Positions 43,357 through 50,834 of a DNA stretch of 64,000 nucleotides are shown here, one piece after another. Under the pieces are notes generated by a model. That model had not been told where the DNA came from. It searched no databases and saw only the letters and a program-made list of their open reading frames with translations. The position numbers were made by a program, and so were the translations under genes. Numbering within the stretch: position 1 is the first letter of the stretch; each line of letters starts with the position of its first letter. The DNA is taken from the IMG/VR virus record IMGVR_UViG_3300028430_000572, positions 1-64,000 of that record. One strand, given 5' to 3'. The stretch is from a virus.

Positions 43357-44166
43357 CTATTGCGGATCGGGAATCGACTTGAACACTGGGCGAGGCGGCG
43401 AAGTTGGAACGAGTTTGATTTTCGCAGCGTCGAGTTGAGCACTGGTATTTCGCATTGACACTTCGGCACGATTGAGCGTCTTGTTGGCTTGCTTGATCGG
43501 GGGGGGTTCGTGCTGCTGCGTTGCTCGGCTCGGAACTTCGGGGATTGCTTTGACTTCTTCGCGTCGCTTGTCAGCGCCCGTAATTCGCATGAGGTGCCCG
43601 AGATCAACCGCACACTCGGTCAGTGACTTGAGCGTGCGAGCGATGTTGGCCCCTTCCGTCGTTGTCAGTTCCGTATTTGGAATGGCCTGCCCGTCATGCA
43701 CACGCTCCGAAATCGCCGCTGTCCATTGGGACATCACTTGCGCCGACTGCGTAAGCCTTTTGACGAGCGTTACGAATGCTTCATTGCCGACCTTTGGATT
43801 CGTTTCGGTGGCGTAGAGGTAATTGACTTTGCGAGCGGTCGAAATGCCGCCGTCGATAATCGCGGCCTGCTTCGCGACGGTACGCAAACCGCCAGCCTCG
43901 TATGCGGTCCAGAACGGGATATGGAAATGCCAGCAGAAGTCTTTGAGCGAAAACGTCGGCCACATATTCCATTGTCTGCGAATCTCTGGCCAGTTGTAGA
44001 CCATGCCCTTTGGCGAAACTTGAGCGAACCCCCAAAGCACGCACCGGCGAGTGCCCGGAAACGGCAAATCGTTTTCGAGCGGGTTGTGCTTCGGATATGT
44101 AGCCGTTTCGATGCCGATGGGCTTCTTTGATTCGCCAGCGGTATTGAACTTGCGACGCTTCGGCAT
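43357..44166 (-). CDS. Unknown protein, possible small-terminase-like
   Basis: 269 residues. Basic start (MPKRRKF). FSLKDFCWHFHIPFWTAYEAGG near residue 75 could be a helix-turn-helix. A helical middle (VGNEAFVTLVKRLTQSAQVM) and a Pro-rich C-terminus with charged helix follow. The layout (HTH, helical oligomerisation part, tail) resembles small terminase subunits, and the ParB-like neighbour fits such a pairing, but terL is 20 kb away. TAATG coupling with the gene upstream. Confidence 0.45.
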   Translation of the reverse strand: MPKRRKFNTAGESKKPIGIETATYPKHNPLENDLPFPGTRRCVLWGFAQVSPKGMVYNWPEIRRQWNMWPTFSLKDFCWHFHIPFWTAYEAGGLRTVAKQAAIIDGGISTARKVNYLYATETNPKVGNEAFVTLVKRLTQSAQVMSQWTAAISERVHDGQAIPNTELTTTEGANIARTLKSLTECAVDLGHLMRITGADKRREEVKAIPEVPSRATQQHEPPPIKQANKTLNRAEVSMRNTSAQLDAAKIKLVPTSPPRPVFKSIPDPQ

Positions 44167-45251
44167 TACGCGCACTCCGAGATGATTTTCTTCGCGCGAC
44201 GATGAGCGTCGCTGCCGGACTTGCTCATCGTAGTAGCAATGCTATCCAGCAGCGTAACGGGCGAATCGCCGCCGATCGTTTGCTCGCGAATCTGCCTGAC
44301 GATTTCGTTGATTTCCATTTCGTCGAGCGGAGCGGCCTGCTCTTTCTCTTCTGCGAACGCGAGCGACGACTCAGTTCTCGGCAACGCAATGCGAGACACG
44401 CGACACTTTTCGCCGATGATGCACAGTCGCGTCATCGTGGGCGAGTGATGATCCTCGCCTTTACCGACGATGATCGAAGTTCCGACTTGCAAAAACAGCC
44501 CGCGACCAGCGCCAAACTTGTCGGCGTAATCGACTTTGCCCGAGCCGGTCTGATCGTGCAAGTGCCCATTGCAAACGACCGACGATCGAGCGAGCATCCC
44601 GCCGTGAGAAGCGACTACGAGTTCGTGTGCTTCAGTCGTTGCGATGTAAGCATCGGCATGTGACAATCCTACAACGAACGTCGCCACACCGTGCTTCATG
44701 CACGCCGCCGCCGAACGCTCCATTGCAGATACCGCCATACCGTGCGAAGTCTTGTATCCAGCGCCGATAATGCCGACAGCCGTATTGCCAACTTTGATAC
44801 GCGCTGGATCAAGTTCAGCGTCTCGAACGAGTCCCGATTGCAGCAGCACGCCGAACGCCTGAGACAATCGCGATGTCGAAGGGTCGCCAGCGAACTGGTC
44901 GTGATTGCCGTCGATGCCGAGGATAGGGCCGGTCATCTTGACAATCGGACGAAGCAGTTGCATAAGTGCAATGGCTTCCGCACACGACGCGCCCTTGCGA
45001 TGGAACCAATCTCCGACGCAGCACACGATCGGGTATTGCCCGCTCGCAGCGTGCTCTTTGGAGACTTGTTCGGCCACGAACTTGAGCACCGATACAAGGT
45101 CTTTGGCGTAAGTATCGTTTCGTCCCGAAGGCGGATTGATCGAGAAGTGCAGATCGCCAAGAACGTAAACAATCACTTCGTCGGCATCGATATTGGCGAC
45201 GGGAGCGGCTGGTCGATTTCGTGGCGAAATTGATTGCTTACTTGTGGGCAT
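44166..45251 (-). CDS. SbcD/Mre11-like metallophosphoesterase
   Basis: 361 residues. Metal-binding motifs in order: VLGDLHF (near 31), CVGDWFHRK (near 80), GIDGNHDQF (near 112), then SHADAY and CNGHLHDQ. This is the nuclease partner of Rad50/SbcC in double-strand end processing (T4 gp47 equivalent). It overlaps the SbcC-like N-half gene by 14 nt. The first 15 residues contain IR-encoded ISPRN ahead of the enzyme domain. The C-terminus (helical, DAHRRAKKIISECA) probably contacts the ATPase. Confidence 0.85.
   Translation of the reverse strand: MPTSKQSISPRNRPAAPVANIDADEVIVYVLGDLHFSINPPSGRNDTYAKDLVSVLKFVAEQVSKEHAASGQYPIVCCVGDWFHRKGASCAEAIALMQLLRPIVKMTGPILGIDGNHDQFAGDPSTSRLSQAFGVLLQSGLVRDAELDPARIKVGNTAVGIIGAGYKTSHGMAVSAMERSAAACMKHGVATFVVGLSHADAYIATTEAHELVVASHGGMLARSSVVCNGHLHDQTGSGKVDYADKFGAGRGLFLQVGTSIIVGKGEDHHSPTMTRLCIIGEKCRVSRIALPRTESSLAFAEEKEQAAPLDEMEINEIVRQIREQTIGGDSPVTLLDSIATTMSKSGSDAHRRAKKIISECA
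45215..45231. repeat. IR copy in 5' coding end of the SbcD-like gene
   Basis: GATTTCG-TGG-CGAAATT, 20 bp downstream of the ATG, read as ISPRN. Confidence 0.9.
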
Positions 45252-46248
45252 GTTGATTGTCCATCGGGCGACCGCACGTTGGGCACTTGCGCGACATCGC
45301 CGCGAGTTGATTGTTCAATTCGGCAATGCGAAGCAACAATTGATCGCTCCGCGACTCGGCATCTTCTGGAATCGCGGTAAGCGATAACAAAAACGATTCG
45401 ACTGCTTCATGCTTCGATTTCGCTGCCTTGATTTTATCGAGCAGCGATTTGATATCGGCAATCGACTTTGACAACTCATCATGCCGCCGACTCATGCTTT
45501 CGATGTCGATGCTGCTATCGAACGTCGCGACAATATCGAGTGCTGCATCGCGAGCCTTCGCGTCGCGAGCGATGTCGCGTTCGGTCGATTCGATATCGGT
45601 AACAAGCGACTCGATTTTGTCGGCGTTGATAATCGCCGGGTCGGACTCGGCGGCAGACAGTCGCGATTCGGCATCTTGCATCATTTTCGATTTCGTATCG
45701 AAATCGCGAGCAGCGGACGCGGCATCCGTCTTTGCTCGCCCGGACGCTTCCATCGCAATCGAAGCCCCTGACGCAGCGCCGATAATCTTGGCGACACGGC
45801 CAGCAGGATCATCGACAAGAATCGCGGCCTCGCGTTGTGTTTGGATGTTGAGCAAAATATCGATCCCGGCGATACGAGTCGGGCCGAGGCCGACAGTTGC
45901 AATCCAATCGTCGGGCAAGGACCGCCCCGGGTTCGTGAGGGATCGACGAGACACTTTGCCCGTTTTCGCGTCTTTTGTCGATGCAACGTATTCGCCTTTG
46001 CCGTCAGACTTGCGAACGACCGATATTTGCTTGCCGTCTGCGAAGTCAACAACGATCTTGCCTTCTTCAAATCCGTCCCTGACAAACGATGCGGCTGGCG
46101 AAGGATGTGAGCACGCCACAAGCGAGCGAACGATGTTGCTTTTGCCTGAGTCGGACGACCCGAAGATTACGCTCAGCCCTGGGCTAAGCGCAATGTCGGT
46201 CGATTCGTGCGAACGTACGTTCGTCAGTCTGATTCGCGAGATCGTCAT
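45238..46248 (-). CDS. SbcC/Rad50-like ATPase, N-terminal half with zinc hook
   Basis: 336 residues. Walker A FGSSDSGKSN at 29-38 follows the typical NVRSHESTDIALSPG start. A coiled coil runs from about 175 to 315. The protein ends with the Rad50 hook KCPTCGRPMDNQ (Cys 322/325). Everything after the hook (returning coil, signature motif, Walker B) is absent here and appears to be encoded separately at 49848-50471. It lies between recA-like and sbcD-like genes. An IR is in frame (DFDTKS). Confidence 0.85.
   Translation of the reverse strand: MTISRIRLTNVRSHESTDIALSPGLSVIFGSSDSGKSNIVRSLVACSHPSPAASFVRDGFEEGKIVVDFADGKQISVVRKSDGKGEYVASTKDAKTGKVSRRSLTNPGRSLPDDWIATVGLGPTRIAGIDILLNIQTQREAAILVDDPAGRVAKIIGAASGASIAMEASGRAKTDAASAARDFDTKSKMMQDAESRLSAAESDPAIINADKIESLVTDIESTERDIARDAKARDAALDIVATFDSSIDIESMSRRHDELSKSIADIKSLLDKIKAAKSKHEAVESFLLSLTAIPEDAESRSDQLLLRIAELNNQLAAMSRKCPTCGRPMDNQHAHK
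45689..45705. repeat. IR copy inside the SbcC-like N-half gene
   Basis: GATTTCG-TAT-CGAAATC in the coiled-coil coding part, read as DFDTKS. Confidence 0.85.
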
Positions 46249-47406
46249 TTAGTCGTCCATCCCCGCGAGCATTACGCGACCCTTGACTTGCTGCTGCGAC
46301 TTAATGCCTTTTGCTTCGTTCGATGCGACGGTTCGCTCCATCGCGTCGCGGAACTTTTTGTCCGATCGCAGTCGCTCGATTACCTTGATCGCGCTGCCAA
46401 GATTGACCGCCTCGCGTCCCGGAGCAGCGATCGTGCAAGTGCGACCGTTCTTGATTACGCCTGCTTCGACTGCGCGATCGAATAGTTCGACTTCGGCACT
46501 GATGCCTACACCGTGCCCGAGTTCATATGTCGCGACGTTGCCGCGAAGTCCTGTGACTTTGTTCTTCATGCAACGAATGTTGCAAATCTTCCCGGCAGAG
46601 AAGTATCCGGGCTTGTGCGATCCCGATACGTCGAGTTTGATTGCGTCGAAGTATTCGGTCGCCTTGCCGCCGGGCGTTGTGCGAGGATCGCCGAACGCAA
46701 CGCCAATCTTATCTCGCCACTGATTAATGAGAATGGTCGTGCATCCATTCCGAGCCATCGAGCCGGTCATGCGGCGGAACATTTTGTTGAGTTGTCGCGG
46801 GAGCAGTCCGACAGTGTTGCTCGCCATTGACAAGTCTTGCTCAGCGGCAGACAGCATCGCCGGGATCGAGTCTACAACGACGAGTCCGAACTCGCCGGTG
46901 TCACACAATGCAACGGCGATGTCTACGCCTTCTTCGAGCGTGGCCGGAGAATGCACAAAGAGATTGGCGCTATCGATATTTGCAATCTTCCCGTTCGTGT
47001 CGGCGACTGCAACGACGGCACTCGGAGCACACGCTTTGAGATACGTCATATCAAGCGTGTGCTCGAAGTCGAGGTAGAGCACTTTGCGAGGCACGGGCGT
47101 TGTCTTCATGCCTTCGGCAGAAGGCGACACGAACGTTGCGTCGGCGGGCTGCGACATCACCGCCTCCGCGAGCGTGAACGCAAGAGTCGTCTTGCCGCTC
47201 GCGGCGTTGCCGACAATTTCAATCCAGTATCCAGAAGGGAGACCCGGGGATTGCTCGCCGCCGAGCAGCACGCCGAGCGACTTGTGACGCATCGGAACGA
47301 TGCGCCGAGACGACGGCATAAACAGCGGCACGTCGAGTTGCTTGCGAAGCGCGTTGATTACGCCGTCGAGAGAATGACCGGCGACCTTGACTCGTTCTTT
47401 GCTCAT
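46249..47406 (-). CDS. recA: RecA-family recombinase
   Basis: 385 residues. Walker A VGNAASGKTT at 65-74, Walker B FGLVVVDSIPAM, and ILINQWRDKIG...DPRTTPGGKATEYF matching RecA's INQxRxKIG...TTGGxAxxFY loop L2 region. It forms filaments on single-stranded DNA for strand exchange and recombination-dependent replication (UvsX role). Start ATG 47406 is 4 nt after TATATC, predicted leaderless. It heads a recA - sbcC(N) - sbcD unit with overlapping or abutting frames. Confidence 0.92.
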   Translation of the reverse strand: MSKERVKVAGHSLDGVINALRKQLDVPLFMPSSRRIVPMRHKSLGVLLGGEQSPGLPSGYWIEIVGNAASGKTTLAFTLAEAVMSQPADATFVSPSAEGMKTTPVPRKVLYLDFEHTLDMTYLKACAPSAVVAVADTNGKIANIDSANLFVHSPATLEEGVDIAVALCDTGEFGLVVVDSIPAMLSAAEQDLSMASNTVGLLPRQLNKMFRRMTGSMARNGCTTILINQWRDKIGVAFGDPRTTPGGKATEYFDAIKLDVSGSHKPGYFSAGKICNIRCMKNKVTGLRGNVATYELGHGVGISAEVELFDRAVEAGVIKNGRTCTIAAPGREAVNLGSAIKVIERLRSDKKFRDAMERTVASNEAKGIKSQQQVKGRVMLAGMDD

Positions 47407-47410
47407 GCTT

Positions 47411-47463
47411 GATATACCCCGAACTGCGAGCGATTATCGATGGTTTGATTTCGTCACGAAATT
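47411..47463 (-). promoter_or_regulatory. IR-linked leaderless promoter of recA
   Basis: IR at 47447-47463, GATAATCGCTCGCAG box, TATATC at 47411-47416 (31 bp), 4 nt, ATG 47406. Confidence 0.75.
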
Positions 47464-47465
47464 GA

Positions 47466-48122
47466 TTACTTGTTACGGGCGATTTCGTCCGCGTGAACTC
47501 GATTGGCGCACGTCAAGGCGATCGCGATTGCATCTACCGCGTGCTCGCCGAGCGTGTTGATGTTGCCGTTGTAAGTATGCCCGTAATCGCGGGCAAGTGC
47601 TCGCTGCACCGATACCTTGTCGGGCATCGAAGACTTGTATTTGATGCCGCGATGTGCGGGCGATGCGAGCCAGTTTGCTTTCGACAATCCCGGCCATTGG
47701 GGGCAACAGAATACCTTGTGCTGGCGAGGGGTAATCGCGACTTTGTTTGCCGCGTCGAACGCTCGCGACATGCCCGAAGCGCGAGACGACCACCACGCCT
47801 TGATACCGAGCATTGCACAAGCAAGACCGATCCCGGCTTCTTCGCGTCGATTCATAAAGCCGCGAGCGAATCCTTCGTACGCGATTACGTCGATGTGTGC
47901 TGGCGATCCGTTCTGCCGAAGGATCGAGATAGCGCGATTGCAAGATACCGTGATTCTGTCAGGCAGATTGATCTTGGCCCATGCCGAGTGTTCGACCGAT
48001 TGATCGGCCCAAAGAACTTTCGTCGTGTTGACATACGAATCGCAATCGATACGAACAAGCGCCATGCCGACGGACTTGATCGAGTGATCTACGCCGAGAA
48101 CGTACTTGTAATTGGTCGCCAT
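47466..48122 (-). CDS. RuvC-like Holliday junction resolvase
   Basis: 218 residues. YVLGVDHSIKSVGMALVRID supplies the first catalytic Asp of the RNase H fold, IDVIAYEGFARG the Glu, and GEHAVDAIAIALT the C-terminal DA(I/D)A motif with the last acidic residues. Phage RuvC-like enzymes resolve recombination intermediates before packaging. It lies between the SSB-like and recA genes. ATG 48122 has only a weak SD. The stop precedes an IR. Confidence 0.8.
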   Translation of the reverse strand: MATNYKYVLGVDHSIKSVGMALVRIDCDSYVNTTKVLWADQSVEHSAWAKINLPDRITVSCNRAISILRQNGSPAHIDVIAYEGFARGFMNRREEAGIGLACAMLGIKAWWSSRASGMSRAFDAANKVAITPRQHKVFCCPQWPGLSKANWLASPAHRGIKYKSSMPDKVSVQRALARDYGHTYNGNINTLGEHAVDAIAIALTCANRVHADEIARNK

Positions 48123-48156
48123 AAAGCGCCGGAATCGCTTTCGCAATCCCGGAGCC

Positions 48157-48173
48157 GATTTCGTCACGAAATC
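48157..48173. repeat. IR copy overlapping SSB-like stop
   Basis: GATTTCG-TCA-CGAAATC; the stop codon 48172-48174 overlaps its edge. Confidence 0.9.
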
Positions 48174-49335
48174 AATCGAGCAGTTCGTCGTCAGTGCTCG
48201 CAGGCCGCGCGGTCGGCTTTGAGGGGCCGGGCCTGACAGCGGGCTTGGCGACGGGCTTACCGGGAGCGGGTCGCGCGACAGGCTTGGCGACCGGCTTAGC
48301 GACAGGCTTGGCGGGAGCGGGGCGAGCGGCGGGCTTCGGAGCAGGAGCAGGCTCGCCGAGCAAGTCGGCATCATCGTCGCCCGATTCCGCTTCGTCGCCG
48401 GTGTCGTCCGCTTCGTCGCCGGTGTCGTCCGCAACATCGCCGAGCAAGTCGGCGGCTTCGTCATCGGTGATTTCGGCCTCGGGCTCCGGCTCGGCCTGCT
48501 TCGCCGAGCGAGCATTGCGACGCGACGGAGCGGGAGCCTCGTCCTGCACGAGATCGGACTCGTCGCCCTCGCTCGCCCCGCCGCCCATCATGCGAGCAAT
48601 CGACGCTTCGAGTGAAGCCGCAGGCTCGGGCGCGATGTAATCGGCGAGCACTTGCCAAAGGCCCGGGTGCCACGGATCGCCGTCGGGGATGTCGGCATCG
48701 GACTCGGGATCGCGACTGCGGAGCATGTTGTTTTCCCGCACGATCGCAACGACATCTTTGAGCGAAGCAGTCGGGTTAGCGGCGACTTGGAAGTTCAACT
48801 CCTTGAACTTCTCTTTGCCGGGCACAAGCGACGCGACAAGTTCGACTTGTCGCAAGTGCTTCTTGCCTCCCTTGACGGGATCGGGAATCGAGTTGCGAAG
48901 AATCTCCCGCAACTGCACGAACTTGCCGCCAGCGAACCCCCAAGGGAGAATCTGATTGACCTTCTGCGTCCGCCCTTTGCTTGTCGTGGCGACGTGCGCA
49001 ACGACCGTCGCGTAGCGCTTGGCGCGAGCAACGTTGGCGGGCGTGATAAGCCCGAGACGGAACAACGGGCAGCCAGCCTTGAGCGTGTCCCAATCGTTGT
49101 TCTGCAAAGCCTCATCGATCGCCCCCGCGTCCAGCACGGAATGGGCGAAGAACCCGCTCGTGTCATCGGGCGACGAAACGCGCGTGCCGTAGTAGATAAC
49201 GGGGTCGGCCAAGATGCGGAAGTGGTAGGTGCTGCCCTTGGTGCTCGGGTCGAACGCCTCGGGACGCTCGATGTACCCGCCAGCGGTCACACTGTCATCG
49301 TCGAATCCGGTCGTCTTGATGTTCGGCTTACCCAT
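48172..49335 (-). CDS. Single-stranded DNA-binding protein candidate
   Basis: 387 residues. The first 240 form a globular, OB-like beta-rich domain (YHFRILADPVIYYG, KRYATVVAHVATTSKGRTQ, ELVASLVPGKEKFKEL). The rest is disordered: acidic DDTGDEADD repeats, Pro/Ala/Lys repeats of the PAKPVAKP type, and a final acidic TDDELLD, the signature end of SSBs that recruits partners. It sits among replication and recombination genes like T4 gene 32. There is no sequence-level motif proof. Confidence 0.6.
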   Translation of the reverse strand: MGKPNIKTTGFDDDSVTAGGYIERPEAFDPSTKGSTYHFRILADPVIYYGTRVSSPDDTSGFFAHSVLDAGAIDEALQNNDWDTLKAGCPLFRLGLITPANVARAKRYATVVAHVATTSKGRTQKVNQILPWGFAGGKFVQLREILRNSIPDPVKGGKKHLRQVELVASLVPGKEKFKELNFQVAANPTASLKDVVAIVRENNMLRSRDPESDADIPDGDPWHPGLWQVLADYIAPEPAASLEASIARMMGGGASEGDESDLVQDEAPAPSRRNARSAKQAEPEPEAEITDDEAADLLGDVADDTGDEADDTGDEAESGDDDADLLGEPAPAPKPAARPAPAKPVAKPVAKPVARPAPGKPVAKPAVRPGPSKPTARPASTDDELLD

Positions 49336-49356
49336 CGTTCTTGCCTTTCGATTGAA

Positions 49357-49851
49357 TCAAACACGGTACCCGGACACGCTGCCCGGGGATTGCTCATTCA
49401 TGCGGCGAATCGCGTTGAGCGTTTCCTTCATTTGCTCATTGGATTTGATCGCCGAGTCTATTTGCTCCATGACCATTGCGAGATCAGTGACGCGAGCGCG
49501 GGCGACCGCCAACTGTGCTGCCACGTCTTGCGTAATCGCGTCAACTTCTGCCATCTTGTCGGATCGATTTCGCAGCGAAATCACAACGGGATCGGACATC
49601 GCCTTGCTACGTTCAACTCGATTAAGTTCGGAGAGCAGATGTACCCTGCGCCGCGCTTCGGCGAGCAGCGGGGCGGTCTTGAGTTTCAGTGCGTCGAGCG
49701 ATTGTCGCTTCGACATGCAATCGAGCATTTGGACGGCCAGCCCTGCGAAGTCGATTTCTTCGCCCGGCTGAGGCGTGCGGACTCGCGGGACGAGCGACGC
49801 GAGCCGCTGCGCGAGTTTCGTCCAGTTCACTTTTGGTATGGCTTGGCTCAT
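49357..49851 (-). CDS. Coiled-coil protein next to SbcC-like C-half
   Basis: 164 residues, helical, with coiled coil from about 60 to 150 (RRRVHLLSELNRVERSK, VARARVTDLAMVMEQIDSAIK). An IR lies in frame, read as ISLRN. It overlaps the SbcC-like C-half gene by 4 nt. It may be a structural partner (for example an arm of the split SMC-like complex). Not recognised. Confidence 0.55.
   Translation of the reverse strand: MSQAIPKVNWTKLAQRLASLVPRVRTPQPGEEIDFAGLAVQMLDCMSKRQSLDALKLKTAPLLAEARRRVHLLSELNRVERSKAMSDPVVISLRNRSDKMAEVDAITQDVAAQLAVARARVTDLAMVMEQIDSAIKSNEQMKETLNAIRRMNEQSPGSVSGYRV
49566..49582. repeat. IR copy inside coiled-coil gene
   Basis: GATTTCG-CAG-CGAAATC; read as ISLRN in the frame. Confidence 0.85.
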
Positions 49852-50471
49852 TGCACAGTGACGCGAGAAACGTTGTTCGTCCGGGTGACAAATATACGAG
49901 TCGAAGCGGACGCGGCGAGTTCTGGTTCGTGAGAAACAACGATGATCTGTACTTTGAGTTCGTCCGCGAGCCTGCGAACCATTTGCGCGACGTAGCCCAT
50001 TCGATCAGAAGACACGTGCCGGAACGGCTCATCCGCGATGATGATCGGCGCAACCGTGCGGCGGCTCATCGCAACGACCGACAATCGCAGTGCGAACGCC
50101 ACGACATCGACAACGCCGCCGCCGACATCAGCGAGCGAACGCCACGCGATCGACTTGCCGACGGTGTAGCCGACGAGCGGGGTCATTTCGATTTGGCCCC
50201 GACGCTGGGCGACTTCGAGTTGGAAATGCACGCCTTGCCCAAACGCGATCGCGAGCGCGAGCCCGACCACTCGCTCGATCCGCTGCCTGATCGCCGATCG
50301 GGACGCATCGGCGACGGCGAGTAGCATCGCTGCGGCATCGGCGGCAACAGCGGCCTCGTGTTCGGCGGTGTCGCGCGCAGCACGGGCCGCGTCCGCGTCG
50401 CGTCGTGCTGCCGCAACGGCCCCGCGTGCCGCTGCGACGATATCAAGCGCCCGTCGCGTTGTCGTGCTCAT
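49848..50471 (-). CDS. SbcC/Rad50-like ATPase, C-terminal half
   Basis: 207 residues. A short Ala/Arg-rich coiled coil, then the ABC signature-like SLADVGGGVVDVVAFALRL at 112-130, Walker B and D-loop region APIIIADEPFRHVSSDR at 141-157 and the switch His VVSHEPELA. These are exactly the motifs missing from the N-half at 45238-46248, and no Walker A or hook Cys is present here. The two would form one composite ATPase. G+C-richer than the N-half. ATGA overlaps on both sides. Confidence 0.8.
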   Translation of the reverse strand: MSTTTRRALDIVAAARGAVAAARRDADAARAARDTAEHEAAVAADAAAMLLAVADASRSAIRQRIERVVGLALAIAFGQGVHFQLEVAQRRGQIEMTPLVGYTVGKSIAWRSLADVGGGVVDVVAFALRLSVVAMSRRTVAPIIIADEPFRHVSSDRMGYVAQMVRRLADELKVQIIVVSHEPELAASASTRIFVTRTNNVSRVTVQ

Positions 50472-50776
50472 GGGTGCCCCGACCTGCCCGCCTCATCGCG
50501 TGCGGCGGCGATGTCGGTAAGCGTCGCGTCAAGTGCTGCGGCCATCTTGGCGAGCCTGCCCTCGGCTGCGGCAATACGCTCGCCGAGCGTTGTCGCGGCT
50601 GCCCCGATCGCGGCCACGGGATCGTCGCCCGGATCGATACTCATCCGTTGGCAGAAATCGCTCGCTCGCTTGCGGTCGGATTCGTGGGCGCGAAGCGTCG
50701 CCGTGATCTCGGCGAGTTCCCGTTCGGCGGCGGCGATGCTTCGCCGCACGCTGTCGGTTTGTATCGGAGTGCTCAT
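50468..50776 (-). CDS. Coiled-coil protein, leaderless, coupled to SbcC-like C-half
   Basis: 102 residues, one long coiled coil in two stretches (SVRRSIAAAERELAEITATLR and TLGERIAAAEGRLAKMAAALD). ATG 50776 lies 5 nt after TATATC; the stop overlaps the C-half start (ATGA). It may supply coil length missing from the C-half. No other homology visible. Confidence 0.6.
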   Translation of the reverse strand: MSTPIQTDSVRRSIAAAERELAEITATLRAHESDRKRASDFCQRMSIDPGDDPVAAIGAAATTLGERIAAAEGRLAKMAAALDATLTDIAAARDEAGRSGHP

Positions 50777-50781
50777 GCCAC

Positions 50782-50834
50782 GATATATCGGGCTCGCGTG
50801 CTTATCGTGCGTCGGTCGATTTCGTGGCGAAATG
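50782..50834 (-). promoter_or_regulatory. IR-linked leaderless promoter
   Basis: IR at 50818-50834; GACCGACGC; ACGATA; 15 nt; TATATC at 50782-50787 (31 bp); 5 nt; ATG 50776. Practically identical to 34780-34832. Confidence 0.8.

What the first reader, a model, noticed from the sequence alone, without database searches (positions are those of the whole stretch)
45238..50776. Rad50/SbcC ATPase split into two distant genes
The 336-residue protein has Walker A, one coiled coil and ends exactly at the zinc hook. The signature motif, Walker B and switch His are found on a 207-residue protein 3.6 kb upstream, which has no Walker A or hook. The gap contains recA, a resolvase, an SSB candidate and a coiled-coil gene. 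A third coiled-coil protein (50468-50776) is coupled to the C-half. The hook would dimerise only N-halves unless partners add coil, so the complex should have unusual geometry.
Basis: partly seen in the sequence, partly recalled or inferred. Interest (0 to 1): 0.7.

Follow-up and report, generated by a model that had tools for sequence, protein, structure and literature searches.

The report
Phage DNA-repair ATPase in separate genes
This phage encodes the DNA-break-repair ATPase Rad50 as two separate half-proteins plus a small helper and the Mre11-type nuclease, and the same undescribed split turns up in many unrelated phages, which suggests a working multi-part version of a universal repair machine rather than a broken gene.

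Summary
One Rad50/SMC ATPase domain is divided between two genes. The N-half (45238-46248, -) has Walker A, the Q-loop and an arm, and ends at a CxxC zinc hook. The C-half (49848-50471, -) has one helix, then signature, Walker B and switch His. The 68-kb record holds no other SMC/Rad50 domain.

The split is not peculiar to this window. It recurs, hook terminus included, in a Bacillus phage, a Microcystis phage, the jumbo phage Tunturi_5, a 485-kb phage and many IMG/VR contigs; in a Bacillota survey 65 of 398 genomes had C-half-family hits, nearly all stand-alone. A small helical-hairpin gene (here 50468-50776) and an Mre11/SbcD-type nuclease (44166-45251) accompany the halves almost everywhere. 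I therefore read it as a four-component Mre11-Rad50 (SbcCD) complex of phages, working in DNA-end processing for recombination.

New details: N-half arms vary in length in steps of about 47 residues and carry a 47-residue repeat absent from SMC arms, while the C-half helix stays constant, so the two arms do not match as in canonical Rad50; the signature serine is glycine in every C-half examined. I found no paper describing the split. Assembly, geometry and activity are inferred, not shown.

The parts
45238..46248 (-). Rad50 N-half: ABC lobe I (Walker A, Q-loop), helical arm, C-terminal CxxC zinc half-hook
   Evidence: phrog_16465 1.2e-21 and AAA_23 1.6e-11; family profile hits Rad50 5f3w_B 4e-21 and zinc-hook structures 6zff_A 3e-6, 1l8d_A 3e-5; AF2 and Foldseek
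49848..50471 (-). Rad50 C-half: 75-residue helix plus ABC lobe II (GGG signature, Walker B, D-loop, switch His)
   Evidence: phrog_15167 2.9e-26; family profile hits Rad50 3qkr_B 4e-16; AF2 pLDDT 92.7, Foldseek 1f2u_B TMt 0.79
50468..50776 (-). small helix-loop-helix coil protein, conserved partner gene
   Evidence: 4-nt overlap with the C-half start; family found in the other loci, 21 of 32 members phrog_18563; palindrome and -10-like motif 42 nt before this ATG support the start
44166..45251 (-). Mre11/SbcD-type metallophosphoesterase (true start may lie after the palindrome at 45215-45231)
   Evidence: family profile hits Mre11/SbcD structures, best 3qg5_C 2.8e-16; invariant D33, H35, G80, D81, G115, H117, D118, G229, H232; 14-nt overlap with N-half
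46249..47406 (-). RecA/UvsX recombinase immediately upstream of N-half (TAA|ATG junction)
   Evidence: RecA 3.5e-34, phrog_97 9e-44; junction
47466..48122 (-). RuvC-like Holliday junction resolvase (context)
   Evidence: phrog_159 8e-7; start taken after palindrome at 48157
48172..49335 (-). 387-aa protein, SSB candidate by position only (context)
   Evidence: no Pfam or PHROGs hit
49357..49851 (-). 164-aa coil protein, 4-nt overlap with C-half end; not conserved with the system
   Evidence: no relative among the related loci then held
50818..50834 (.). 17-bp palindrome before the coil-C-half unit
47447..47463 (.). 17-bp palindrome before the recA-N-half unit

Best explanation
A phage-encoded, four-component Mre11-Rad50 (SbcCD) complex. 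Lobe I (N-half) and lobe II (C-half) assemble in trans into one ABC head; two heads dimerise on ATP; the Mre11/SbcD-type nuclease binds at the head and trims DNA ends for the neighbouring UvsX/RecA-RuvC pathway. The arm leaves the head from the N-half only, lengthens in 47-residue units, and ends in a CxxC that joins two N-halves through zinc. The small hairpin protein probably packs on the C-half helix and arm base in place of the missing return arm. Shown by sequence: the split, the motifs, the partner genes, the hook terminus, the repeat. Predicted: the folds. Inferred: assembly in trans, zinc dimerisation, nuclease activity, role in recombination.
For: Complementary pieces of one SMC_N domain and no other copy in the record. 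N-half family present in 15 of the 16 records that have the C-half family; the exception has its C-half at a contig end. N-half ends within 8-32 residues of a CxxC in 80 of 81 listed frames, duplicates included. Nuclease and hairpin gene in nearly all loci with enough flank. Profiles reach Rad50 lobe I, zinc-hook and lobe II structures and Mre11. Solved Rad50 head structures exist with the two lobes as separate chains (1f2u, 1ii8 A and B), a precedent for assembly in trans. recA adjacent here and in L010.
Against: No complex could be modelled and I know of no biochemistry. The signature serine is glycine in all 70 C-halves, so ATP handling may differ from Rad50. In Magritte the N-half lacks the hook and no hairpin gene was found. 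Tunturi_5 keeps the hairpin gene with the N-half, 108 kb from its C-half, so the hairpin's binding partner is uncertain. The record may be incomplete.
Confidence: 0.8

Rival explanations
1. The halves are decayed or recently broken pieces of one rad50 gene, no longer working together.
For: Halves are 3.6 kb apart here and far apart in Magritte and Tunturi_5.
Against: Catalytic and hook residues are invariant or nearly so across highly divergent loci; the same fission point recurs in dozens of loci; 65 of 68 C-half hits in Bacillota are stand-alone frames.
Confidence: 0.03
2. Each half pairs with a host SbcC/Rad50 and poisons or redirects it (an anti-host or anti-defence role) rather than with the other half.
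For: Bacterial hosts generally carry their own SbcCD (general knowledge, not tested here).
Against: Halves co-occur with each other and with their own nuclease and hairpin gene; both ATP-binding half-sites are largely kept.
Confidence: 0.06
3. It is a defence-type SMC-like system (Lamassu LmuB-like) carried by phages.
For: N-half matches LmuB 1.4e-14 and both halves match MADS mad3.
Against: These matches fall mostly on the shared ABC head; LmuB profiles are single chains of about 600 positions; here the genes sit in a recA-ruvC module with an Mre11-type nuclease.
Confidence: 0.06

Closest known systems
Mre11-Rad50 / SbcCD
   Same: ABC head motifs, zinc-hook CxxC, Mre11-type phosphoesterase with its metal-site motifs, neighbouring recombination genes
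   Different: Rad50 is two polypeptides; hook sits at the C-terminus of the N-half; no return arm in the same chain; extra hairpin protein; signature Ser replaced by Gly; N-arm built from 47-residue repeats and longer than the C-half helix
PHROGs phrog_15167 ('ATPase'), phrog_16465 ('exonuclease'), phrog_18563 (unknown)
   Same: These are the C-half, N-half and hairpin families themselves
   Different: The annotations do not link them or say they are parts of one split Rad50
Rad50 head crystal constructs with lobes as separate chains (PDB 1f2t/1f2u, 1ii8)
   Same: Lobe I and lobe II as two polypeptides forming one head
   Different: Laboratory truncations (my understanding of those entries) without hook, from one natural polypeptide
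Fused nuclease-lobe I-lobe II chains of about 700 aa in Bacillota (L083-L085)
   Same: Same head and nuclease families
   Different: One chain, no arm or hook; the L085 copy lies beside genes resembling addB-addA (by inspection)

Membership tests
Rad50/SbcC | Lobe I with Walker A and Q-loop | tested here: met
   N-half G30, G35, K36, Q138 invariant; profile to Rad50 4e-21
Rad50/SbcC | Lobe II with signature LSGGQ-type, Walker B, D-loop, switch His | tested here: inconclusive
   Walker B DE in 70/70, switch His in 69/70, signature glycines kept, but the signature serine position is Gly in 70/70
Rad50/SbcC | Zinc hook CxxC at the arm tip | tested here: met
   80 of 81 listed N-half frames end at CxxC; profile end matches zinc-hook structures 6zff and 1l8d
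Rad50/SbcC | Both lobes and both antiparallel arms in one polypeptide | tested here: not met
   Separate genes; C-half arm 66-108 residues whatever the N-arm length of 160-358
Rad50/SbcC | Partner Mre11/SbcD nuclease | tested here: met
   Mre11-type gene near the N-half or C-half in nearly all loci with flank
Rad50/SbcC | ATP-driven head dimerisation and DNA-end processing | not testable with these tools
   needs biochemistry
Lamassu LmuB | Single-chain SMC-like protein with a Lamassu effector gene | tested here: not met
   Split chain; no PADLOC hit for the neighbouring nuclease or the two coil genes

The most novel reading that the evidence does not exclude
A distinct branch of the SMC/Rad50 superfamily with a one-way, modular arm: 47-residue repeats carry the hook away from the head with no return arm in any chain, and the ATPase head is completed by a separately encoded, exchangeable C-half plus hairpin protein, so that assembly of the head itself could be the regulated step.
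Probability: 0.35. Interest if true: 0.75.

Novelty: new variant of a known kind. Interest (0 to 1): 0.6.

Why it matters
Rad50/SMC proteins are understood as single chains whose two arms zip together. A natural and common version with the halves on separate genes, a hook only on the N-half and a repeat-built arm of variable length shows which parts of that design are dispensable, and makes arm function directly testable: the length steps and a removable C-half are natural experiments. It also links several families annotated apart ('exonuclease', 'ATPase', hypothetical) into one phage system.

Tried and rejected
Gene decay or assembly error: rejected, see rivals. Host partner or anti-host role: kept at low confidence. 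Lamassu-like defence: matches fall mostly on the ABC head. Coil 49357-49851 as part of the system: no relative in the related loci searched. Hairpin protein plus C-half helix as a return arm matched to the N-arm: rejected for long arms, since their summed length does not rise with N-arm length (rho -0.44; the C-half arm alone rho 0.23), though the shortest arms (160-169) are close to that sum. Alignments of all C-halves or N-halves were too divergent for collection scans. Papers: eight searches; none of the listed papers describes a split phage Rad50 as far as titles and abstracts show (one paper was searched further for SMC/Rad50 passages). The AF2 tool gave no coordinates, so I could not tell a kinked straight rod from an up-down helical bundle; the 57 A rmsd between two models of nearly the same sequence hints at an extended arm.

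Full report
Observation. The window is 64 kb of a 68,353-bp IMG/VR virus record. All genes of interest are on the minus strand. The N-half (45238-46248, 336 aa) carries lobe I of a Rad50/SMC ATPase and ends CPTCGRPMDNQHAHK; the C-half (49848-50471, 207 aa) is one long helix followed by lobe II. Pfam SMC_N matches the record twice only: profile 2-44 in the N-half and 139-215 in the C-half. So one domain is divided between two genes and no complete copy is present.

Partners. Directly after the N-half lies a metallophosphoesterase whose family profile matches solved Mre11/SbcD proteins (2.8e-16) with its motif residues invariant. Before the C-half, overlapping its start by 4 nt, lies a 102-aa helix-loop-helix protein; relatives of it were found in the other loci.

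Recurrence. Starting from weak phage hits I found the same set in Bacillus phage vB_BboS-125, where the nuclease is unannotated, Microcystis phage Mvi-JY20, IMG/VR contigs and Bacillota genomes. Of 16 records with the C-half family, 15 also have the N-half family; the exception has its C-half at a contig end. Halves can be far apart: 93 kb in Magritte, 108 kb and opposite strands in Tunturi_5. In a draw of 398 Bacillota genomes, 65 had C-half-family hits; 65 of 68 hit places were stand-alone frames of 155-314 aa and three were about 700-aa chains in which nuclease, lobe I and lobe II are fused without arm or hook. In 60 of 71 loci the order is N-coil-C, in 10 N-nuclease-coil-C, and the window alone is coil-C-...-N-nuclease; several loci are near-identical, so these are not independent counts.

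Hook. 80 of 81 listed N-half frames (duplicates included) end 8-32 residues after the start of a CxxC; the exception is Magritte. The end of the N-half profile matches zinc-hook crystal structures 6zff and 1l8d. The N-half therefore stops where the canonical chain would turn back.

Arm. From a fixed head position to the hook, arm lengths fall in classes near 160-169 (window 169), 200-209, 263, 310 and 357; in a non-redundant set of 47, quanta of 48.5-50.5 score 0.84-0.85 against a null 99% maximum of 0.43 when measured from anchors 138 or 153 (from anchor 112 the best was 23). Sequence autocorrelation peaks at lag 47 (combined z 34) and 94 (z 19); SMC arms from three genomes peak mostly at multiples of 7 and show nothing at 47 (z -0.9). 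The C-half arm stays at 66-108 residues (median 76). The canonical picture of two equal antiparallel arms cannot apply to the long classes. AF2 breaks the window arm into helices 162-201, 204-246, 249-290 and 297-319; I could not see coordinates.

C-half. In 70 aligned C-halves the catalytic Walker B Glu is invariant and the switch His present in 69, while the signature reads xGGGxxD, with Gly at the usual signature serine.

Mechanism. I infer that the halves assemble in trans, with separately solved Rad50 lobes (1f2u, 1ii8) as precedent, that the nuclease acts at the head, and that zinc joins two N-halves. The gene neighbourhood (UvsX/RecA, RuvC-like) points to recombination. The hairpin protein's role is the least certain step.

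Novelty. Eight searches of the open-access library gave no listed paper whose title or abstract describes this split; subscription journals are not held, so this is not proof of novelty. I rate it a new variant of a known kind.

Noticed in passing
window-wide, e.g. 26801, 34816, 40179, 41743, 47447, 50818, 62268: 17-bp palindrome GATTTCGNNNCGAAATC, 52 matches with up to 3 mismatches against 9 expected, 44 with at most 1. At these sites a minus-strand start codon follows about 41-42 nt on, usually just after a TATAT-like box, as in leaderless promoters. It precedes both the recA-N-half and the coil-C-half units.
   Followed up: partly
window 45689-45705 and 49566-49582: Two copies of the same palindrome lie inside coding sequence, in the N-half and in the 164-aa coil gene.
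   Followed up: no
L083 2652-4754, L084 5764-7818, L085 6583-8670: About 700-aa single chains joining nuclease, lobe I and lobe II with no arm or hook; beside genes resembling addB-addA in L085.
   Followed up: partly
L050 12210-12845: The C-half appears broken again into ORFs of 95 and 111 aa; frameshift or second split not resolved.
   Followed up: no
L002 9407-9979 and L006 4943-5347: In L002 an ORF annotated as an AP2 domain protein sits between N-half and hairpin gene; L006 has a 134-aa ORF that looks similar in the same place. Possibly homing-endonuclease relics.
   Followed up: no
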